In this document: positions 19,608-31,917 of the stretch, piece after piece
Position numbering within the stretch: position 1 is the first letter of the stretch
Layout: each line of letters starts with the position of its first letter
Origin: an uncultured Bacteroidota bacterium
GTDB lineage: Bacteria > Bacteroidota > Bacteroidia > Flavobacteriales > Flavobacteriaceae
Length of the DNA stretch: 38,390 bases
Assembly (NCBI GenBank): GCA_902594485.1
Contig: CACJMJ010000006.1
Coordinates: 1 to 38,390, forward strand
Direction of reading: 5' to 3'
The notes under the pieces: generated by a model
Database searches by the model: none
What the model saw: the letters and a program-made list of their open reading frames with translations, nothing else
What the model was told of the DNA's origin: nothing
Position numbers and translations under genes: made by a program

Positions 19608-20165
19608 TCAATTTGAATAATCAACTTGAATTAAAACTTCGTTTCTTCTGTTGTAAAATTTTGTAGGAGCGTCATATGAAAGGACAAAATGTTCACTCAG
19701 AATTTTAAGATTACTATTTTGTATAGCTTTGACTAACTCTTGTCTATAATTTTCTTCCTTTTTGTTATTGGAATAACCGGAATATTTTATTGCTGCATAA
19801 TATTTTGGTTTAGATATGTATGCCTCTACATCGTTATCATTAGGAACAGGTATCTCTCCTGAGAGAAATTTTTTTGGAAGAACAAATTCCATTGTTTTAC
19901 TCTGATCAGACATGTAGACAGGTGTTGTCATTGCAATTTTTTCCTCGTCTATATTATTACCAGCAATGTATCTGAACAGTTTACCAAAATTATTATTTCT
20001 ACTTTGGTTAGATGATACTCTAATCATAGGAGCACTAGGATAATATCTAATCTCAATTTTATCAATTTGGTCAACTACTTCATATTCTTGAGTCTCATAT
20101 TTTTGTGACATAACCATTGTAGTGTTTAAAAATAAAAATACAGTTAAAATCAAATACTTATTCAT
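19608..20165 (-). CDS. Exported SOUL heme-binding family protein
   Basis: 185 residues with a signal peptide ending in V-M-S-Q. The SOUL/HEBP pattern is clear: Y-E-T-Q-E-Y-E-V-V-D near the mature start, I-E-I-R-Y-Y-P, F-G-K-L-F-R-Y-I-A-G-N-N, the family signature K-I-A-M-T-T-P-V-Y-M and a C-terminal N-E-V-L-I-Q-V. SOUL proteins bind heme or other tetrapyrroles; bacterial members have no settled role. The gene overlaps the 3' end of the large kinase/M23/PLP fusion by 8 bases, so it is translated as part of that operon. Why a periplasmic heme protein belongs with a cytoplasmic catabolic enzyme is unclear. Confidence 0.85.
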   Translation of the reverse strand: MNKYLILTVFLFLNTTMVMSQKYETQEYEVVDQIDKIEIRYYPSAPMIRVSSNQSRNNNFGKLFRYIAGNNIDEEKIAMTTPVYMSDQSKTMEFVLPKKFLSGEIPVPNDNDVEAYISKPKYYAAIKYSGYSNNKKEENYRQELVKAIQNSNLKILSEHFVLSYDAPTKFYNRRNEVLIQVDYSN

Positions 20166-23100
20166 AATACTTATTATTTAAAAAATCTTCGGCTAAGACT
20201 TTGCGAAGATAAAAAATAAACATGTCACAGTTATGTTTATTAAATGTTAAAGGTGGCTTAATTTTAATTACGTTATTGTCTGGACCATCAACGCTTGATA
20301 GAATCCCATATTTTTTTAAACGGTTAACAATGTATATTGTTTCTTCCTCTAAAGGATTCATGTTAAGGTCAATAAACTCAATACCTAGGAACAAACCTTG
20401 ACCTCTTACATCACCTATAATATTAAATTTATTAGATAGCTTTTTAAGTTCTCTTTTGAAATAATCTCCAATAAACATGGAGTTCTCTTGAAGCTTTTCT
20501 TTTTTAATAAATCTCAAGACTTCAGTTCCAATTGAACAAGAAACAGGGTTACCTCCAAACGTATTAAAGAATTCCATTCCATTTGCGAAACTTTCAGCTA
20601 TTTCTTTTGTACAGACTACAGCACCAATCGGATGTCCGTTACCAAGAGGCTTACCTATGGTTATTATATCAGGAACTACATTATGAATTTCAAACCCCCA
20701 GAAAGATTTTCCAATTCTTCCACAGCCTACTTGAACCTCGTCTGAAATACAAATCCCTCCGTTTTTTCTTACAAGATTATATGCATCTTTAAGAAAGCCA
20801 CCTGGTAATTCAACTTGACCTCCGCAACTTAAGATTGGCTCGATTATAAATCCACCTAAACCTCTTTTTTTAGAATTAATATTTTTTATACATGCTTTAA
20901 CTTCATTTAAGTATTTCTTTGCTGATCCAGGACCTTTATATTTTCCACGAAAATTATTTGGTATAGGAATAACATGAGTATTCTCCGGGGGTCCACTTCC
21001 GCCTTTACCATCAAATTTATAGGATGAAATATCAACACAAATATTAGTGTTTCCATGATATCCATGTTCTGAAACTATTATATCAGGTTGTCCAGTATGA
21101 GATTTCATCATTCGAATTGCTAATTCATTAGCTTCACTTCCAGAATTAACAAAGTGAACAACAGATAGCTTTTCAGGAAGTGTTTTCAATAGTTCTTTAG
21201 ATAGTTCATTGATATTCTTATGAAGATATCTCGAATTGGTATTTAAGATTGACATTTGACTTTTACCTTTTGCAACTACCGATTCATTTTCGTGTCCAAC
21301 ATGTGCAACATTATTAACAGTATCTAAATATTTTCTACCGTAGTTATCCATTAAGTAAACACCCTCTCCTCTTACAATATGAAGAGGCTCCTCATAGTGA
21401 AGTTTAAGGCTTTTGCCTAAATGGCTATTTCTGTATTTGATTAATTCATCTTCTGAATCATATAGATCAAGATCTAAAACTTTTGATTTAAAAATCAAAT
21501 TAGGATCAGGACATAAATCTTTCCAAACATCAATTTGGTTAAAATAGCATACTCCTGGATAGTCAATCTTATAATCAAGCATTGATAACATTATTTGAAA
21601 ATGTAAATGAGGTGCCCAATTTCCATTCTCTGGATAATTTGCTATCTCTGCAATTACATCCCCCTTCTTTACTTTGCTACCTATCTTATTTTTTAGTACA
21701 CTGTCTACTGTATTATGTCCATATAGAGTATAAAATTCTAAATCCTCAATATTGTGCTTTAGAATGACAAGCCCACCGTATTCTTTGTCCCCTTCATCAT
21801 TAACAGCAGTTACAACTTCTCCGTCAAACATAGTGCTCACTTTAGTTTCTGGAGGTAGCCAAAAGTCTAATCCCAAATGAATAGTCCTATTTTCAACTCC
21901 ATAGTTTCCTGTTTTTTCATATGTGTCAGATGTGTATATTGCTCTAGGTTCTAGATACCCTCCTGCAATTATTTTTTTAGGATATTTTTTTTGAAGTTTA
22001 TCTATTTTAAATTGAAATAAGTTTAGGTCTTCTATCTCATTTCTTCCTCCAATCCACTCACTTCCAACACTAAGATCAATTTTATAAAATTCAGATTCTT
22101 TTAATTTTGGAAATATATCTTTTACTGAGAATGTTTTATTTCTAATCCATTTAGAAAATTTTTGTTTGTTTGGATGAGCATCTAGATTACATGCTTTTCT
22201 AAATGAATAATATGCATATTCTGAGTTTATCTCTGACCAAATCTTTAGAAGATCCCATGCAGGTTTTTCACTAATCAGAAGATATTTATTATCAGGCTCC
22301 TCAATTCTATTAATCAATGATTTAGTAACAGAGATTACAAGTCTCATGCCAATTAAATTATAAAGCATTTTTAATTCATCATCATTTATAAAAGATAATT
22401 GATTATAGCCAGAAACTATTTCACAACACCCTGCAAGCGGGTCATTTAAATTCATAATTCCATATGAACATGTAATTGCTAAATCATTTATTTTTTGAGA
22501 ATATATTGAGTCTCCAAAGTCAATTATAGACGCTATTTTAGGGTTTATTCTATCATTTGATACAACAATATTATTATCGTTAATATCATTATGAATAACT
22601 GACTTTTTTAGTTCATTATATATAGATAGGTTATTTTTAAAATCTTTGATAAAATTTTTAAGAATTTCTCTTTTATTAACCTCAAACTTTTTCAAATGCT
22701 CTTCAACCCACAAAGAGCCTGATATGTCCCAGTCTATTTTTCGATTAGAGAAAGAATGTTTAAATTTTTCTAATGATTCAGAAATAATCGCAGTTTTTGA
22801 CCCAAGCTCTTTCCTTAATGTTTTTTCAATAGGATTAACGGAGCTCCAAAGTCTTCCCTCAATCCAGGATAATAACCTGATGCACCTATCTTTGCCAAAA
22901 CTATCCTTTTCTATACAAAATGGTTTTCCTTCAATTGTATTAATATTTGATGCAAAATCAATATCACAGTCTTTGTTTAGGTGATCTAAAAGCTTAATCT
23001 GATAATCAATATAATCTGAATTAAAATCTGATCTTGATATCTTTATTAAGTATTTATTATCATCGGATGAATGAACTCTAAAATTATAATCAATTTCTCC

Positions 23101-23193
23101 ATCAAGTCTATCAATCGCGCCAATTATGTTATAATTATGCTTAAGAATTTTTTTTAATTCTTTAATTGATATTCCGGATTTCTCTAGGCTCAT
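20158..23193 (-). CDS. Kinase / M23 / class III PLP enzyme three-domain fusion
   Basis: 1011 residues, ATG start, no signal peptide, so cytoplasmic. Domain 1 (about 1-340) is an aminoglycoside-phosphotransferase-like kinase with H-N-D-I-N-D-N-N (H201, D203) and I-I-D-F-G-D (D225). Domain 2 (about 405-570) is an M23/LytM fold with all four metal and catalytic residues: H439 and D443 in H-L-G-L-D, and H529 and H531 in H-L-H. Domain 3 (about 590-1011) is a class III aminotransferase with G-S-E-A-N (685-689), D818 in S-D-E-V-Q and PLP lysine K848 in G-K-P-L-G-N-G-H-P. Domains 1 and 3 resemble hydroxylysine kinase and the phospho-lyases acting on phosphohydroxylysine or phosphoethanolamine. A phosphorylate-then-eliminate enzyme is inferred. 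The role of the M23 domain is unknown. Confidence 0.88.
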
Positions 23194-23219
23194 ACAGTAA
23201 TGTCTTTAATTAGACTAAT

Positions 23220-24251
23220 CTAGGGAGCAGGATTTGGAATCTTTTCATTCACTGAATTTATTTCAGCAACAATTTCTTTGGATAACTTAATATTAATACT
23301 ATTAATATTCTCTTTAAGTTGATTCATAGAGGTAGCGCCAATTATGTTGCTAGTTACAAAGGGTCTATCATTTACAAATGCTAATGACATTTCGGTAAGA
23401 CTTAAATCATACTTTATAGCTATATCATAATAAAGATCTGTAGCTTTAAAACACTTATCATTACTAAACCTAGCAAGATTTGAAAATAATTTTAATCTAC
23501 TATTCTCAGGCATATTACCATTTCTATATTTACCCGAAAGAACACCAAATCCCAAAGGTGAATATGCTAACAAGCCTACATTTTCTCTTTTACATATTTC
23601 TGCACTTCCAACTTCAAATAATCTATTTAATAGAGAATAAGGATTTTGAATTGTAATCATTTTAGGTAACCCCTCCTTAGAATACTCAAGATATTTCATA
23701 ATTCCCCATGGATTTTCATTAGATAGCCCAACATATCTAACTTTTCCTGAATCAACAATTTTTTTAAGAGTCTCTAGAATTTCTCTGAAGTTATCATCCC
23801 AGCCATCATCAATATAATCAAACCCTCTCTTACCAAAATAGTTTGTAGCTCTTTCTGGCCAATGAAGTTGATATAAATCCAGATAATCTGTCTTTAATCT
23901 TTCAAGACTTCCATTAACAGCTTCTTCAATGGATGTTCCTTTGAATCCAGTCTTTCTAATATGCGCGGTATAATCACCTGGGCCTGCAATTTTTGAAGCA
24001 AGAATAACTTTATCTCTTGAGTTTCTTGACTCAAGCCAATTACCAATTATTTTTTCAGTATCAGCATATCTCTCAGGTGTTGCAGGTACTGGATATAGTT
24101 CTGCAGTATCAAAAAAATTAACTCCTTTATCTAAACTATAATCCATTTGTTCAAAAGCCTCAGCTTCTGAATTCTGTCTTCCCCAAGTCATAGTTCCAAG
24201 ACATATTTTACTTACTTCAATATCTGTACCAGGCAGTTTATTATATTCCAT
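23220..24251 (-). CDS. Tas-type NADP(H)-dependent aldo/keto reductase
   Basis: 343 residues, ATG start. The catalytic tetrad of aldo/keto reductases is intact: D48 and Y53 in F-F-D-T-A-E-L-Y-P-V-P, K87 in A-S-K-I-A-G-P, and H130 in Y-Q-L-H-W-P-E-R. The sequence follows E. coli Tas closely in pattern, including E-K-I-I-G-N-W-L and T-D-Y-L-D-L-Y-Q. It reduces small aldehydes or ketones with NADPH in the cytoplasm. It lies 26 bases upstream of the kinase/PLP fusion and 12 downstream of a methyltransferase gene, in one minus-strand operon. It may reduce the aldehyde formed by the phospho-lyase domain; that link rests on context only. Confidence 0.88.
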   Translation of the reverse strand: MEYNKLPGTDIEVSKICLGTMTWGRQNSEAEAFEQMDYSLDKGVNFFDTAELYPVPATPERYADTEKIIGNWLESRNSRDKVILASKIAGPGDYTAHIRKTGFKGTSIEEAVNGSLERLKTDYLDLYQLHWPERATNYFGKRGFDYIDDGWDDNFREILETLKKIVDSGKVRYVGLSNENPWGIMKYLEYSKEGLPKMITIQNPYSLLNRLFEVGSAEICKRENVGLLAYSPLGFGVLSGKYRNGNMPENSRLKLFSNLARFSNDKCFKATDLYYDIAIKYDLSLTEMSLAFVNDRPFVTSNIIGATSMNQLKENINSINIKLSKEIVAEINSVNEKIPNPAP

Positions 24252-24263
24252 ATTAATAATAAT

Positions 24264-24872
24264 TTATTTTATTGATGAGAAACTGCAAAATATAAAATTT
24301 TGAGTCGTTTCAAAAGGGGTAATATGATTTATGTTCTCAGTTCTTTTCATAGAGATGTCTTGATCTTCAAACAATTTTTTTAATGACGATTCATCATATT
24401 GAGTTATATCTAGTCCACTACATTTTTTTGGACCTAAAGTTGAAAAAGTCCCAACTATAAAGTTTTGAGTATTTAATTTTACTTTTCTGACGTATCTATC
24501 TATTTCAACTTTAGAGGTTAAAAAATGAAAGACAGCTCTATCATGCCAAATTGCATAGTTCTCTTTGGGTTCAAAATCATTTAAATCACAAACTATCCAT
24601 TTTATATATTGAGATTTAACTCCTAGTCTTTCTTTTGCTTTATTGATTGCATTCTTTGATATATCAAGGACAGATATATTTTTATACCCGCTGTCTAAAA
24701 GATAATCAACAAATTTACTTTCACCACCACCAATATCAATTATTGGATCATCTTTTCGAATTTTAAAATCTTTAAAAAAGTCAATAGATGTATCAGGAAT
24801 CTCCTCGGTCCATGACACCTCTTGAGGGCTCTTTTCCTTATATATTCTTTCCCAATGAGATTTATAGGACAT
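24264..24872 (-). CDS. Class I SAM-dependent methyltransferase
   Basis: 202 residues from the ATG at 24872. The frame stays open further upstream, but the added N-terminus is not methyltransferase-like and would run into the divergent permease gene. The domain starts S-Y-K-S-H-W-E-R-I-Y, as expected for this group. Motif I is I-I-D-I-G-G-G-E-S (around residues 44-52), with L-D-I-S (about 68-71) and W-H-D-R-A-V-F-H-F-L further on. These features match small soluble methyltransferases of the TehB/thiopurine-like type. It is the first gene of the operon leading to the kinase/PLP fusion, with the divergent permease 64 bases away. The acceptor is unknown. Confidence 0.8.
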   Translation of the reverse strand: MSYKSHWERIYKEKSPQEVSWTEEIPDTSIDFFKDFKIRKDDPIIDIGGGESKFVDYLLDSGYKNISVLDISKNAINKAKERLGVKSQYIKWIVCDLNDFEPKENYAIWHDRAVFHFLTSKVEIDRYVRKVKLNTQNFIVGTFSTLGPKKCSGLDITQYDESSLKKLFEDQDISMKRTENINHITPFETTQNFIFCSFSSIK

Positions 24873-24936
24873 ATTTAAATGTACAAAAAGTAGTTCTAAA
24901 TAATGTGTATTTTGCGTAAGCATTGATTTAAAAAAA

Positions 24937-26406
24937 TTGGCAAATAATAAATTAAAAAGAGAAATGGGACTTCTGCTAGTAACAGCTACTGGTATATGTT
25001 CAATGATGGGTGCATCTATCAATGTAATCCCTTTTATGATTCAAAAGAATGTACCTGGAATTGGGCCTTACGTTGTACCTGCTTTTTTATTTGCAGCTAT
25101 TCCTGCAATTTTTGCCGCATATGCATATGCAATATTATCTTCTGCAATGCCAAGAGCAGGGGGTAGCTATCTATATGCAAGTAGAGGATTAAGCCCATAC
25201 CTTGGTTTCATTGCAAGTTTTTCTCAATGGTTTGGCTTATCTATAGTTATAGGTGTGATTTCATACATAATCGTTCCATTTATTCGTGATGTTTTTTTTA
25301 ATCTAGGATTTATGAATATTTCAGATTTTTTAGAGGTAGGATCTGTTAGACTGATTATCTCTCTTTTTCTAATCTGGCTCTTTGTTTTAATTAACATAAT
25401 AGGTGGTAAAGTATATAAAAACACTTTGATACCCATGCTAGTTATTATGTTTGTTCTTGGAAGTATAGTTTTAATTACAGGATTAGTTTATGACCAAAAT
25501 GATTTTATTAATTCTGTCTTAAATTCGGAGAATAGAGTTATTGAGCCAATCTCAGATATTAAGTTTGATTGGAGAATATTTCTTACGGCATCGACTTTAA
25601 TGTTTTCTAGCTTTATTGGATTTGATGCAATAGCTCAGACAGGTAATGAAGCAAAAAACCCTACAAAAAATATACCACGTGCAATTTTACTTGCAATTTT
25701 TATAGTGGCTTCTTACTACATCCTATTTACTATCTCAGTATATAATATTGTTCCATGGAGTTTTGTTGCAGATGAGTCTATTACAAAAGATATAACAGCT
25801 CCTGGCTTATTGAGTTATGTGCTTCCACCATTTTGGGGAATTTTAATAATTATTGGAGCTGCAATTGCACTTATCAATGATTTACCTGCAATGATATTGT
25901 CTGTTTCAAGATTAATGTTTGCATGGGCAAAGGATAATATCTTCCCTAATAGAGTAGCCCTCATTCATTCAAAGTTTAATACACCATACATAGCAATCAT
26001 TCTTGTGGGATTTGTTGCAAGTATAGGAGCTATTGGCTCTCATTTTGCAGGAGACTTTTTCCTTGGTATAGATATTATGGTAACTTCCATGATGATAAAT
26101 TTCTTACTAATGTGTGTTACCCTTATCTCTATTCAAAGAGTCAATCTTAAACTATCTAGAAATATTACGGTAATTAAGAACCGAGCAATTCAACTTTTTA
26201 TTGGTTACACAGGAACATTAATTATCTCGGTCTTTTTAATAATTCACACATACAAGGATTTATCGTCCAATGTTGAAGAGTGGTATTTTCACTCAACTTA
26301 TATTTACTTAATCGTAATGACAATTGCCAGTATATATTTTGCTTTAAGATGGAAAACAGTCCAAGTAAAAAACAAAAACACATTTAAAACTCTACCAGTT
26401 GAATAG
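24937..26406 (+). CDS. APC-family amino acid permease
   Basis: 489 residues from a TTG start; the ATG at 24964 is an alternative, but the N-terminal K-L-K-R-E-M-G-L-L is typical for the family and favours TTG. About 12 membrane helices are present. APC signatures include G-A-S-I-N-V-I-P-F, P-R-A-G-G-S-Y-L-Y-A-S-R-G-L-S-P-Y-L-G-F (about 68-87) and F-D-A-I-A-Q-T-G-N-E-A-K-N-P (about 229-242). It imports amino acids or amines. It heads a plus-strand operon whose next gene overlaps it by 8 bases, and is divergent from the methyltransferase/AKR/fusion operon. It is the obvious uptake step for that pathway, whatever its substrate. Confidence 0.9.
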   Translation: MANNKLKREMGLLLVTATGICSMMGASINVIPFMIQKNVPGIGPYVVPAFLFAAIPAIFAAYAYAILSSAMPRAGGSYLYASRGLSPYLGFIASFSQWFGLSIVIGVISYIIVPFIRDVFFNLGFMNISDFLEVGSVRLIISLFLIWLFVLINIIGGKVYKNTLIPMLVIMFVLGSIVLITGLVYDQNDFINSVLNSENRVIEPISDIKFDWRIFLTASTLMFSSFIGFDAIAQTGNEAKNPTKNIPRAILLAIFIVASYYILFTISVYNIVPWSFVADESITKDITAPGLLSYVLPPFWGILIIIGAAIALINDLPAMILSVSRLMFAWAKDNIFPNRVALIHSKFNTPYIAIILVGFVASIGAIGSHFAGDFFLGIDIMVTSMMINFLLMCVTLISIQRVNLKLSRNITVIKNRAIQLFIGYTGTLIISVFLIIHTYKDLSSNVEEWYFHSTYIYLIVMTIASIYFALRWKTVQVKNKNTFKTLPVE

Positions 26407-27850
26407 GTTAGTAAATATCTCAGATAATAGTTCTGTACCTAGAGTTCTTATTGGTCTTTGGCAAATAGCGGATATGGAAAAAAATGGCAACATATTAGAT
26501 TCAGAAAGTGCATCAAAGTTTATGAATATATATGCTGATAATGGATTTACATCTTTTGATATGGCTGATCATTATGGATCAAGTGAAATCATTTCAGGGG
26601 TATTTAAGAATAACTATAAAAATCCCGATAAAATAAATTTATTCACAAAGTGGGTTCCAAAACCTGATATTATTTCTAAAGAATCTACAAGAGAGGCTGT
26701 GAATCTTGCGTTGAAAAGAATGAATCAGTCTCAAATAGATTTAATGCAGTTTCATGCATGGCATTATCAAGATCCAAGTTGGCTTGATGCATTATATTAT
26801 TTAAACGAGTTAAAGGTAGAGGGTAAAATTAAAGATATTGGTGTAACAAATTTTGATACAACACATTTGAGAATAGCTTTAGCATCAGGTATTCCAATTG
26901 TGTCTAACCAAATTTGTTATTCACTCTTAGATAGGAGAGCTAGTTTTGAGATGTCAGATTTATGTAAAGAATTTAATATTAAACTATTTGCATTTGGGAC
27001 TTTAGCTGGAGGTTTTTTATCTAATAAGTGGCTAGGAAAGTCAGAACCTAATATTAATGATAAACTTAATTGGTCTCAAATGAAATATAAAAGGTTTATT
27101 GATATTACAGGAGGGTGGTCTTTATTTCAGAACCTATTACAACAACTAAATTTAATTGCCAATAAAAAAAACACTTCTATCGCAAATATTGCAAGTAGAT
27201 ATATACTCGAAGATCCTAATGTTGCATCTGTAATTATTGGAGCTAGATTAGGAGAGAATAATCATGTTAATGAGCACAAAGAAATCATTGACATTAATCT
27301 CTCTATAAGTGAAAAAGAATTAATTTCTAAATCATTAAATTTATTAAAGAAAGTACCTGGAGATTGTGGGGATGAATACAGAAAACCACCATTCTTAACA
27401 GCATCAGGAGATTTGAGTCATCATCTTGATTCTATTCCAAATGTATTCAAGGTTAAAAAAATTAATAATATGAGAAAAAATATTTCAAGTAACACAAGTT
27501 GGGAAAAAATGGCTAGTTACTCTAGAGCAGTTAGGCATGGAAATAGAATAATTGTGTCTGGAACAACTGCAACCCATGAAGATAAAGTTATTGGTAAAAA
27601 AGATCCAATAGCTCAAACAGATTTTATCATTGACAAAATTGAGGCTTCCATCTCTTCTTTGGGGGGTAAATTATCTGAAGTTGTAAAGACAAGAGTTTTT
27701 GTGAAAAACATTGAAGATTGGAAAGATATTGCTGAAACTCATGGTAAAAGATTCAAGGGTATTAATCCAGCTAACACATTAGTTCAAGCTAAATTAGTTG
27801 GTGAGGAATATCTTGTTGAAATTGAAGCTGAGGCTATTATTAAAGATTAG
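26399..27850 (+). CDS. Aldo/keto reductase-RidA fusion
   Basis: 483 residues. It begins at a TTG that overlaps the permease stop by 8 bases; the first internal ATG would cut into the barrel. Residues about 14-320 form an aldo/keto reductase with D54 and Y59 in F-D-M-A-D-H-Y-G, K84 in F-T-K-W and H119 in F-H-A-W. A linker with P-G-D-C-G-D-E-Y leads to a RidA/YjgF domain (about 365-483) with the Arg of T-R-V-F-V-K-N-I (R432) and V-E-I-E-A-E-A-I at the end. RidA hydrolyses reactive enamines and imines released by PLP enzymes. Fusing it to a reductase suggests an imine is hydrolysed and the product reduced in turn. It should cooperate with the divergent PLP fusion. Confidence 0.88.
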   Translation: MNRLVNISDNSSVPRVLIGLWQIADMEKNGNILDSESASKFMNIYADNGFTSFDMADHYGSSEIISGVFKNNYKNPDKINLFTKWVPKPDIISKESTREAVNLALKRMNQSQIDLMQFHAWHYQDPSWLDALYYLNELKVEGKIKDIGVTNFDTTHLRIALASGIPIVSNQICYSLLDRRASFEMSDLCKEFNIKLFAFGTLAGGFLSNKWLGKSEPNINDKLNWSQMKYKRFIDITGGWSLFQNLLQQLNLIANKKNTSIANIASRYILEDPNVASVIIGARLGENNHVNEHKEIIDINLSISEKELISKSLNLLKKVPGDCGDEYRKPPFLTASGDLSHHLDSIPNVFKVKKINNMRKNISSNTSWEKMASYSRAVRHGNRIIVSGTTATHEDKVIGKKDPIAQTDFIIDKIEASISSLGGKLSEVVKTRVFVKNIEDWKDIAETHGKRFKGINPANTLVQAKLVGEEYLVEIEAEAIIKD

Positions 27851-27853
27851 TTT

Positions 27854-28300
27854 ATGTACTCAATAACTGTTGATGAAGATATCATTTTGGAGATAAAGGA
27901 AGTAGATATTAGTTCGCTTATTCCTCATGAAAAGGTACTCCTTGATAAGAAAGAGATATTAAAGAATAACCTTAAATATAAAAATGATGACATAATTATC
28001 TCAACAATAATTGTTTGTAGTGAATCAAATCTTATAATTGATGGTCATCATAGATATACTGCTCTTAAAGAGCTAGGATATAATAAAATTCCAGTTACTA
28101 TAATTAATTATTTTTCCAATCATATTATTACAGATGATAAGGATAGCCTTTCAAAAAATAAAATTATCAGTAACTCATTAAATGATAATTTATTTGAACC
28201 AAAAACTACAAAGCATTTAGTTTATTGTAATAAAAATAAAAGTTGGTTTCCAGTTACTCTATTATCTTCACTTTATCTTTTAGAATCAATAAAAAATTAG
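27854..28300 (+). CDS. ParB-fold protein, free-serine-kinase-like
   Basis: 148 residues, ATG start 3 bases after the previous stop. The N-terminal ~90 residues have the ParB/sulfiredoxin core: V-D-I-S-S-L-I-P-H-E (Glu26), then I-I-D-G-H-H-R-Y-T-A-L-K-E-L-G (61-75) and I-P-V-T-I-I-N-Y. This differs from chromosome-partition ParB and has no helix-turn-helix DNA-binding domain. It resembles the SbnI/SerK type, in which the ParB fold phosphorylates free L-serine with an essential Glu. It is the third gene of the permease operon, so a small-molecule kinase fits better than DNA segregation. The C-terminal 50 residues are not recognised. It overlaps the convergent metalloprotease gene by 4 bases. 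Confidence 0.65.
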   Translation: MYSITVDEDIILEIKEVDISSLIPHEKVLLDKKEILKNNLKYKNDDIIISTIIVCSESNLIIDGHHRYTALKELGYNKIPVTIINYFSNHIITDDKDSLSKNKIISNSLNDNLFEPKTTKHLVYCNKNKSWFPVTLLSSLYLLESIKN

Positions 28301-30711: not shown

Positions 30712-31917
30712 CTATTTAATCTTGTTAAATGTTAATCCAGCTTTTGAAACAAGTCTATCGAGAATGTTATCACCCATTGCATATGACGGAGTTAGTACAC
30801 CATATTTTTCTTCTAAATCATCTTTTGCAAGACAGACTGCACTTTCAGCTAACATTTTAGAGGTAGAGCCATAACCAGGATCTCTATCACCAGTTACTTT
30901 AAAAATGGATTTATTATCCTCACCTTGAAAAACAAAAAATCTTAAACTAAAATATCCGCTTTCTCTTTCTTTTTTATTTGGTCCCTGTCCTGGTTTAGGA
31001 GAAATAATATTAAAAATTTTATTAAAGAAAGATCCTGGTTTTGCGGCAAGAAACATAAGAGGAATTGATAGAAAAATTCCATTTAATTTTCCTTTAAATC
31101 CTTTCCCAGTCATTACGGCTTCGTCATATGTAAATTCTTTTCCATAACTGAAATTACTTAATGCATTACTCCTTCTAACAATTCGGGTATTAATTCCAGC
31201 CATTAAAAAAGGGGATATCCAGCTTTTAATTCTTTTATCATATTTCACAGATCTTAAATCTCTCTTATCAAGTCCATCTTGTTGCCCAACAGGATTTAGT
31301 CCGTAAGGATTAGTTAAACTTTTTCTTACTTCCCTATCTTTAAATGCCTCCTTGATTATATTCTGCATACTTGCGTATGTTCCCCCACTGTAGGTTCCTT
31401 TAGCACCTGTAACTCTCATTCTTATTGAGAGGTTTTTTTTGGAAATATTTTTATGAATATAATATACACCTAGATCTGATGGTATAGAATCAAAACCACA
31501 AGAATTAACTATTCTTACGTTATTATCTTTAGCATCTTCATGATGAAGATCAATCATTTTTCTAATCCACTGTGCTTCACCGGCTAGATCACAATAATGT
31601 GTTTTTGAGCTAACACATGACTTTACAAGTAGAGATCCGTATTTTGCATATGGGCCGACCGTAGTGCAAATTACCTTGGTTCTTTTTGTCATTTTTTTTA
31701 GGCTAATCTCATCAAAACTGTCTGCAATGATTATTGGAATTTTCTCATCAAGGTATTGGTCTCTTATTTTATTTAGCTTATTGCCATCTCTACCTGCTAT
31801 AGCCCATTTCAATTCATTAGGACTATAATTTTGAGATAAATATTCAGCAACAAGTCTGCCCGTAAATCCTGATGCACCCCAGATTATGATATCAAACTCT
31901 CTTTTATCTAACGACAT
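30712..31917 (-). CDS. Saccharopine-dehydrogenase-like protein (trans-acting enoyl reductase type)
   Basis: 401 residues, ATG start. The N-terminus is a Rossmann fold, I-I-W-G-A-S-G-F-T-G-R-L-V-A-E-Y-L (10-27), then W-A-I-A-G-R-D and C-T-T-V-G-P-Y. The motif H-Y-C-D-L-A-G-E and S-C-G-F-D-S-I-P-S-D-L-G are signatures of the saccharopine dehydrogenase-like oxidoreductases known as trans-acting enoyl reductases in mycobacteria and SCCPDH in animals. The late G-S-T-S-K-M-L-A-E-S-A also fits. It probably acts on a lipid substrate with NADPH in the cytoplasm or at the membrane. It stands alone, 73 bases from the divergent SGNH gene. The physiological substrate in Bacteroidota is not known to me. 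Confidence 0.82.
   Translation of the reverse strand: MSLDKREFDIIIWGASGFTGRLVAEYLSQNYSPNELKWAIAGRDGNKLNKIRDQYLDEKIPIIIADSFDEISLKKMTKRTKVICTTVGPYAKYGSLLVKSCVSSKTHYCDLAGEAQWIRKMIDLHHEDAKDNNVRIVNSCGFDSIPSDLGVYYIHKNISKKNLSIRMRVTGAKGTYSGGTYASMQNIIKEAFKDREVRKSLTNPYGLNPVGQQDGLDKRDLRSVKYDKRIKSWISPFLMAGINTRIVRRSNALSNFSYGKEFTYDEAVMTGKGFKGKLNGIFLSIPLMFLAAKPGSFFNKIFNIISPKPGQGPNKKERESGYFSLRFFVFQGEDNKSIFKVTGDRDPGYGSTSKMLAESAVCLAKDDLEEKYGVLTPSYAMGDNILDRLVSKAGLTFNKIK

What the first reader, a model, noticed from the sequence alone, without database searches (positions are those of the whole stretch)
19608..28300. Divergent locus that looks like an unassigned phosphorylate-and-eliminate pathway for an amino alcohol or hydroxy-amino acid
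One side encodes a methyltransferase, a Tas-type aldo/keto reductase and a kinase/M23/class III PLP fusion. The other, starting 64 bases away, encodes an APC permease, an aldo/keto reductase-RidA fusion and a ParB-fold protein like free-serine kinases. Domains 1 and 3 of the fusion resemble hydroxylysine kinase and phosphohydroxylysine/phosphoethanolamine phospho-lyases. These release an enamine, which RidA would hydrolyse, and an aldehyde, which the reductases could remove. The parts therefore fit one route: import, phosphorylation, elimination, deamination, reduction. The substrate and the pathway as a whole are inferred.
Basis: partly seen in the sequence, partly recalled or inferred. Interest (0 to 1): 0.85.

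Follow-up and report, generated by a model that had tools for sequence, protein, structure and literature searches.

The report
Likely hydroxylysine-splitting enzyme beside unrelated genes
A marine bacterium carries a three-part enzyme that most likely phosphorylates and then splits hydroxylysine, the sugar-bearing amino acid of collagen; many relatives keep it beside genes that look made for stripping collagen sugars and burning hydroxyproline, while the neighbouring transporter genes that seemed to belong to it are a separate, changeable block.

Summary
The seven genes are real and correctly described. The fusion (20158-23193) is a full-length PRK06148-like protein: kinase, M23 domain and class III PLP domain, with the motifs of all three intact. 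Its PLP domain is closest to human ethanolamine-phosphate phospho-lyase by sequence, tree and structure. So 'phosphorylate and eliminate' is well supported for this one protein.

The seven-gene pathway is not. The APC / AKR-RidA cassette is beside the fusion in 5 of 16 readable same-genus loci and in 0 of 100 loci outside the genus. Elsewhere it lives without the fusion. The ParB-fold protein is an orphan, short, serine-kinase-like gene.

Relatives point to the substrate. In part of the Bacteroidota (30 of 98 non-redundant loci outside the genus) the fusion lies beside a GH63 alpha-glucosidase, a GH2 beta-galactosidase and/or hydroxyproline genes, in places with proline-specific peptidases. 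This GH63 occurs in 7 of 149 genomes, all with the fusion, 6 of 7 directly adjacent. That fits collagen's Glc-Gal-hydroxylysine and hydroxyproline. I therefore assign the fusion as hydroxylysine kinase/phosphohydroxylysine lyase (about 0.6). The window's genus lacks the collagen-type partners, so its hydroxylysine source is open. The M23 domain's role is unknown.

The parts
20158..23193 (-). Kinase (res. ~1-360) / M23 (~361-575) / phospho-lyase-type class III PLP (~576-1011) fusion, PRK06148-like: the core enzyme
   Evidence: Pfam and NCBIfam; motifs; closest solved structures 6tor and 5g4i; tree; model pLDDT 83.9
22114..23193 (-). Kinase domain; HxDxxxxN at res. 201-208 and DFGD at 225-228
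   Evidence: a profile of 16 kinase domains finds only homoserine kinase 2ppq, E 0.005
21469..22113 (-). M23 domain; H439, D443, H493, H529, H531 invariant in the 24-row alignment
   Evidence: LytM glycyl-glycine endopeptidase E 3.5e-6
20158..21468 (-). PLP phospho-lyase-type domain; K848 in GKPLGNGHP
23220..24251 (-). Tas-type aldo/keto reductase, next to the fusion in 16 of 16 readable same-genus loci; not a partner outside the genus
24264..24872 (-). SAM methyltransferase, 14 of 16 readable same-genus loci
19608..20165 (-). SOUL heme-binding protein overlapping the 3' end of the fusion; genus synteny only
24937..26406 (+). APC permease of the separate, variable cassette
26399..27850 (+). 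AKR-RidA fusion of the separate, variable cassette
27854..28300 (+). Short ParB-fold, free-serine-kinase-like protein; orphan gene

Best explanation
The locus is a neighbourhood of at least two unlinked systems. Core: the kinase/M23/PLP fusion is a cytoplasmic amino-alcohol kinase plus phospho-lyase. Its most likely substrate is 5-hydroxylysine: ATP phosphorylates the 5-hydroxyl, the PLP domain binds the 6-amino group and eliminates phosphate, and the enamine hydrolyses to ammonia and 2-aminoadipate 6-semialdehyde. In part of the Bacteroidota the same protein would work at the end of a collagen route: a GH63 alpha-glucosidase and a GH2 beta-galactosidase strip Glc-alpha1,2-Gal from hydroxylysine, proline-specific peptidases open the peptides, and adjacent genes burn 4- and 3-hydroxyproline. 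In the window's small-genome genus only the fusion is kept. Shown here: domains, intact motifs, phospho-lyase affiliation, gene neighbourhoods. Inferred: the substrate, all activities, the order and place of the steps. The APC/AKR-RidA cassette and the ParB-fold gene are separate.
For: PLP domain: 6tor 418 bits, 5g4i 313, next best 171; Foldseek 6tor 46% identity, TMt 0.85; the tree sets it apart from dialkylglycine decarboxylase and a class III paralogue, with human ETNPPL nested among fusion rows. Kinase and M23 motifs conserved. Context: GH63 in 7 of 149 genomes, 7 of 7 with the fusion, 6 of 7 within 200 bases, p 1.0e-6 against 0 of 104 other genomes outside the genus. PF05544 (hydroxyproline epimerase/dehydratase family) in 20 of 25 fusion-bearing against 16 of 99 other genomes outside the genus, p 2.9e-9. 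Of 79 non-redundant loci outside the genus that passed a motif filter, 14 have the GH63 (12 within 400 bases), 14 the GH2 (13), 17 a hydroxyproline epimerase or dehydratase, 29 at least one. A 4-hydroxyproline epimerase passes its NCBIfam cut-off (577 vs 376), a pyrroline-2-carboxylate reductase too (363 vs 322). M24, S37 and S9 peptidases in the same island in L060. The non-genus PLP rows that group with the window genus (four rows, three distinct; 100/99) each have the 4-hydroxyproline genes next door.
Against: 50 of those 79 loci show none of these genes, and of 19 loci dropped by the filter only one (L156) does; some contigs are short. Loci of other phyla that were scored show no such set, so the link is a Bacteroidota one. 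The window's genus has neither PF05544 nor this GH63 (0 of 25 genomes, many incomplete). Several neighbours score below their NCBIfam cut-offs: GH63 346 vs 625, GH2 970 vs 999, 3-hydroxyproline dehydratase 384 vs 540, D-amino acid dehydrogenase 285 vs 383. ETNPPL, an ethanolamine-phosphate enzyme, nests among the fusions, while 5g4i, also a phospholyase, falls on the outgroup side of the tree. No characterised phosphohydroxylysine lyase or hydroxylysine kinase was on hand. Rows are related, so p-values overstate independence.
Confidence: 0.6

Rival explanations
1. The fusion degrades ethanolamine: the kinase makes phosphoethanolamine, the lyase gives acetaldehyde, ammonia and phosphate; the Tas reductase may remove acetaldehyde.
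For: Closest solved relative is the human phosphoethanolamine phospho-lyase 6tor, which nests among the fusion rows. Phosphatidylethanolamine is a common lipid (general knowledge). The window genus lacks the collagen-type partners.
Against: None of the recurrent neighbours that I annotated is an ethanolamine gene, whereas sugar-stripping and hydroxyproline genes recur; not every recurrent cluster was annotated.
Confidence: 0.15
2. One reading: APC imports, the fusion phosphorylates and eliminates, RidA hydrolyses the enamine, reductases remove the aldehyde, the ParB-fold protein is an extra kinase.
For: Divergent arrangement in the window and six same-genus genomes. All 7 genus genomes with AKR-RidA also have the fusion; with 19 of 25 having the fusion this has probability 0.10 by chance.
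Against: Cassette absent from 11 of 16 readable genus loci that keep the fusion; 0 of 100 loci outside the genus; AKR-RidA occurs without the fusion; the RidA domain is split into two frames in G017.
Confidence: 0.06
3. The fusion acts on some other phosphorylatable terminal-amine alcohol that collagen users also meet, with hydroxylysine only a side substrate.
For: The family spans Chloroflexota, Pseudomonadota, Thorarchaeota and others, without collagen-type neighbours in the loci scored; specificity cannot be read from sequence here.
Against: The pairing with GH63 and GH2 in an apparent operon across several genera.
Confidence: 0.19

Closest known systems
Animal hydroxylysine kinase (HYKK) plus phospho-lyases PHYKPL and ETNPPL (Veiga-da-Cunha 2012: paper not held, recalled; its title seen in the references of PMC8154272)
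   Same: Kinase then PLP phospho-lyase; PLP domain 45-46% identical to ETNPPL structure 6tor
   Different: Animal enzymes are separate proteins without an M23 domain (recalled)
NCBIfam NF004799 PRK06148 ('hypothetical protein') and NF004800 PRK06149 ('aminotransferase')
   Same: Full-length match, res. 4-1002, 1042.5 bits to PRK06148
   Different: Below its curated cut-off of 1128; no function is assigned to PRK06148 there
Arthrobacter aurescens phospholyase A1RDF1 (5g4i)
   Same: Second best solved structure; shares NNVxHVGH, GKPxGNGHP and GNPVS
   Different: Stand-alone PLP enzyme; not inside the fusion/ETNPPL side of the tree
Free serine kinase SerK / SbnI
   Same: Top Foldseek hits of the ParB-fold model; P24 H25 E26, DGHHR and PKxxxH positions invariant in 15 sequences
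   Different: 148 aa against about 242; lacks the middle of SerK; weak model (pLDDT 72)
PGGHG (GH65) and E. coli YgjK (GH63)
   Same: PGGHG removes Glc from Glc-alpha1,2-Gal-hydroxylysine (PMC8626586, passages); the neighbour GH63 is YgjK-like
   Different: GH63 rather than GH65, and below the YgjK model's cut-off; activity of the flavobacterial GH63 untested

Membership tests
Class III PLP phospho-lyases (ETNPPL/PHYKPL type) | PLP lysine and fold of class III enzymes | tested here: met
   Aminotran_3 254 bits; K848 present in 39 of 39 aligned rows with that region
Class III PLP phospho-lyases (ETNPPL/PHYKPL type) | Groups with characterised phospho-lyases apart from transaminases | tested here: met
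   With ETNPPL on a 97/99 branch and best hits 6tor and 5g4i. Limits: two characterised references, of which 5g4i is not inside that branch; two outgroup rows on very long branches; no PHYKPL
Class III PLP phospho-lyases (ETNPPL/PHYKPL type) | Phosphate elimination from a phosphorylated amino alcohol | not testable with these tools
   needs enzyme assay
Hydroxylysine kinase (HYKK) | APH-type kinase with intact catalytic motifs | tested here: met
Hydroxylysine kinase (HYKK) | Orthology to HYKK / activity on 5-hydroxylysine | tested here: inconclusive
   No HYKK structure found; only 2ppq homoserine kinase at E 0.005; substrate rests on neighbours
PRK06148 (NF004799) | Score over the curated cut-off | tested here: not met
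   1042.5 against 1128; same architecture and full-length match, so a relative, not filed as a member
M23 endopeptidase | Metal and catalytic residues HxxxD...H...HxH | tested here: met
   H439, D443, H493, H529, H531 invariant in 24 of 24
M23 endopeptidase | Peptidase activity | not testable with these tools
   needs enzyme assay; substrate unknown
Free serine kinase SerK | SerK fold and key residues | tested here: inconclusive
   Top structural hits SerK, TMq 0.60; 59.8 bits against cut-off 380; middle of SerK missing
One seven-gene pathway | Genes stay together in relatives | tested here: not met

The most novel reading that the evidence does not exclude
The fusion is a three-step collagen-hydroxylysine processor: the cytoplasmic M23 domain cuts imported glycine-containing hydroxylysine peptides (in the collagen helix hydroxylysine is normally followed by glycine; general knowledge), and the freed hydroxylysine is handed to the kinase and then the phospho-lyase in the same chain. 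Pelagic bacteria such as the window's genus keep it for non-collagen hydroxylysine, for example from diatom silica proteins.
Probability: 0.2. Interest if true: 0.78.

Novelty: new variant of a known kind. Interest (0 to 1): 0.6.

Why it matters
Hydroxylysine breakdown is known in animals; a bacterial counterpart tied to removal of collagen's own disaccharide and to hydroxyproline use would give a function to a widespread 'hypothetical protein' family and a testable route for microbial collagen turnover. The always-intact M23 domain between a kinase and a lyase is an unexplained enzyme design. I saw no paper describing such a cluster in the listings (titles and abstract starts; one search listed 20 of 170 papers). 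Only open-licence papers were searchable, so this is weak evidence that it is not in print.

Tried and rejected
Seven genes as one pathway: rejected on synteny. Tas reductase as the missing aldehyde step: it is next to the fusion in 16 of 16 readable genus loci, but Amt, GlnB and SOUL on the other side are as constant (16 of 17 readable), and outside the genus only two weak AKR hits of 24-25% lie within reach; genus synteny alone is weak evidence. The second AKR of the alphaproteobacterial clusters is AKR-RidA-like (33-40%), not Tas-like (23-26%). ParB-fold gene as part of the route: its neighbours are unrelated in G007 and G079. Kinase against solved structures: little. AKR-RidA against solved structures at E 1e-20: nothing. 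Papers by id not held: Veiga-da-Cunha 2012 and the SbnI kinase paper. Residue terms for SerK gave no hits in PMC5120207; that Glu30 is the mutated residue comes from PDB titles, and its match to E26 here is my inference.

Limits: one genome-contig scan, best 80 of 586 kept, so close relatives dominate; neighbour profiles came from my own seeds; 19 of 102 loci were dropped from the counts by a motif filter and looked at apart. One search took 125 genomes outside the genus; the right number is 124, and one search gives the mended p-values. Two AKR-only hits (G056, G149) were left out of the six genomes; G056 does have the fusion.
Full report
What is there. The window is contig C6 of an 861 kb, 58% complete genome; same-genus genomes measure 0.8-1.3 Mb. 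The nearest named relative found is single-cell genome AG-447-E18, 96% over the fusion.

The core protein. The 1011-residue fusion matches PRK06148 over res. 4-1002 (1042.5 bits, cut-off 1128) and PRK06149 (656 bits, cut-off 973). In an alignment of 40 sequences the HxD and DFGD motifs of the kinase stand in 38, the M23 HxxxD and HxH in 37 of the 37 that have the domain, and the PLP lysine in 39 of 39; of the two rows without the kinase histidine one (L064) is a partial copy and the other (L072) an M23-less relative. In 24 full-length sequences H439, D443, H493, H529 and H531 are invariant. The PLP domain hits human ethanolamine-phosphate phospho-lyase 6tor at 418 bits and the Arthrobacter phospholyase 5g4i at 313, then falls to 171 for dialkylglycine decarboxylase. 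A model of the whole fusion (pLDDT 83.9) finds 6tor first (45-46% identity, TMt 0.84-0.85), 5g4i next (38%), then racemases, decarboxylases and transaminases at 22-29% in the 50 listed rows. In a 97-row tree all the fusion domains, three M23-less relatives and 6tor lie on one side of a 97/99 branch; dialkylglycine decarboxylase, a class III paralogue and also 5g4i lie on the other. 6tor nests with one planctomycete and one Chloroflexota row (90/91). The outgroup branches are very long. Elimination chemistry is thus well supported by descent, not by assay.

The seven genes are not one system. Of 18 same-genus fusion loci fetched (L033-L050), 16 show the side upstream of the fusion: Tas in 16, methyltransferase in 14, APC with AKR-RidA in 5, ParB-fold in 7. 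G010 adds one case split over two contigs. In three loci (L035, L039, L042) APC and AKR-RidA are absent while the ParB-fold gene remains. Among 101 loci with a clear PLP match (L051-L072 without L070, and L126-L205), the 100 outside the genus have no hit at E 1e-10 to APC, AKR-RidA, ParB-fold or the methyltransferase; three pairs of these loci are near-copies, flanks reach at most about 10 kb and some contigs are short. AKR-RidA was found in 15 of 296 genomes at E 1e-30: 7 in the genus with the window's own, 8 outside, of which G056 and G149 match only the AKR half and G089 is cut by a contig end. In the six others (L105-L110) the APC permease stands directly beside it; of those six genomes one has the fusion. 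Seventeen plasmid records cover at least 80% of AKR-RidA. I read seven regions: six carry a second AKR and a Liv-type ABC transporter, five of them an annotated TIGR04076 protein and five a GntR regulator; the seventh, L124, differs. None of the seven shows the fusion. The ParB-fold protein is best seen as a short free-serine-kinase relative: the top six Foldseek hits are SerK or its Pyrococcus homologue, and PHE, DGHHR and PKxxxH positions are invariant in 15 sequences. It sits in unrelated surroundings in G007 and G079.

What the fusion keeps company with. Outside the genus, clustering of neighbours, Pfam and NCBIfam show recurring partners; representatives were annotated, not every copy. 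GH63: YgjK-like alpha-glucosidase (PRK10137 346 bits, cut-off 625), in 15 loci, within 12 bases upstream on the same strand in 10 of them. GH2: LacZ-type beta-galactosidase (970 bits, cut-off 999), mostly directly downstream; in 9 loci GH63 and GH2 are both within 400 bases of the fusion. A 4-hydroxyproline set: epimerase (577 bits, cut-off 376), D-amino acid dehydrogenase-like protein (285, cut-off 383), DapA-like protein (167, cut-off 206), aldehyde dehydrogenase. A 3-hydroxyproline set: dehydratase-like PF05544 protein (384, cut-off 540) and pyrroline-2-carboxylate reductase (363, cut-off 322). In L060 two M24 peptidases of prolidase and aminopeptidase P type, an S37 peptidase and a DPP-IV-type S9 peptidase lie in the same 20 kb. 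Counts: 83 of 102 loci passed a motif filter; without L126 and near-copies 79 remain; GH63 14, GH2 14, hydroxyproline epimerase or dehydratase 17, GH63 and hydroxyproline genes together 5, any of these 29, none 50. Of the 19 dropped loci one (L156) has the 4-hydroxyproline set, so 30 of 98.

Genome-wide the link holds too. The GH63 occurs in 7 of 149 genomes at E 1e-60, all with the fusion, six directly adjacent and one (G030) about 13 kb away. PF05544 occurs in 36 of 149; outside the genus in 20 of 25 with a fusion match against 16 of 99 without (p 2.9e-9; GH63 7 of 20 against 0 of 104, p 1.0e-6). The 25 include five kinase-PLP matches without M23, one kinase-M23 and two partial copies. Neither gene is in any of the 25 genus genomes, many of them incomplete. 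Relatedness, and possibly genome size, make the p-values optimistic.

Reading. Collagen carries Glc-alpha1,2-Gal on hydroxylysine (PMC8626586 and PMC11012932, passages seen), plus 4- and 3-hydroxyproline (general knowledge). A cluster with an alpha-glucosidase, a beta-galactosidase, a kinase/phospho-lyase for an amino alcohol, hydroxyproline routes and proline-specific peptidases is explained economically by collagen use, with the fusion acting on hydroxylysine. The glycosidases begin like lipoproteins and the fusion lacks an export signal (by eye), so deglycosylation would be outside and kinase/lyase inside. YgjK's true substrate is not settled: PMC9061262 (passage) says it was assumed to be another alpha-glucoside than nigerose; PMC7263609 (passage) shows galactose at its +1 site. 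I recall, without having read it, that a YgjK glycosynthase product was Glc-alpha1,2-Gal.

The window genus. Its PLP domains group at 100/99 with L149, L177 and L172/L068 (the last two identical), each with the 4-hydroxyproline genes next to the fusion. So the genus may descend from an ancestor with a collagen-type island and have kept the fusion only. Diatom silica proteins contain trimethyl-hydroxylysine (PMC4557024, passages), one possible pelagic source; whether the fusion could use that methylated form is doubtful and untested.

The M23 domain. It resembles LytM glycyl-glycine endopeptidase and keeps its catalytic residues in the 37 copies examined, yet kinase-PLP proteins without it exist (L069, L071, L072) and one kinase-M23 without PLP (L070). 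A peptidase step on glycine-containing hydroxylysine peptides is a guess that fits both facts.

Verdict. Ordinary: the apparent seven-gene pathway is a coincidence of neighbours in part of one genus. Interesting: the fusion now has a specific, testable assignment, with a gene association that I did not see described in the paper listings searched.

Noticed in passing
L119-L123, L125 (alphaproteobacterial plasmids): Uncharacterised cluster: second AKR, LivK, LivGFHM and AKR-RidA in six of seven regions read, five with annotated TIGR04076 and five with GntR.
   Followed up: partly
L105-L109: In other flavobacteria the APC/AKR-RidA pair lies beside a roughly 1030-1040-aa protein (Sortilin/BNR-type in L105, the one tested) in 5 of 5 loci, and near a roughly 550-aa protein alike by eye, without Pfam family in L105.
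   Followed up: partly
window 27854-28300: 148-aa ParB-fold protein that keeps SerK-like motifs but lacks about 100 residues of SerK: a possible minimal free amino acid kinase.
   Followed up: partly
L193, L181, L187, L189, L194: The same kinase/M23/PLP fusion in a Thorarchaeota bin and several Chloroflexota; no collagen-type neighbours by my profiles.
   Followed up: partly
L069, L071, L072; L070: Shorter relatives: kinase-PLP without M23 (about 750 aa) and kinase-M23 without PLP (585 aa).
   Followed up: no
L040: The RidA domain of the G017 AKR-RidA gene is split into two frames, suggesting decay of the cassette there.
   Followed up: no
window 30712-31917: Saccharopine-dehydrogenase-like NADP-binding protein stays near the locus in most of the genus loci with enough flank; whether it could handle 2-aminoadipate semialdehyde is unknown.
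   Followed up: no
L056, L057, L060, L062, L134 and others: A small DUF4440 protein directly downstream of the fusion, within 400 bases in 8 of 79 non-redundant loci; role unknown.
   Followed up: no
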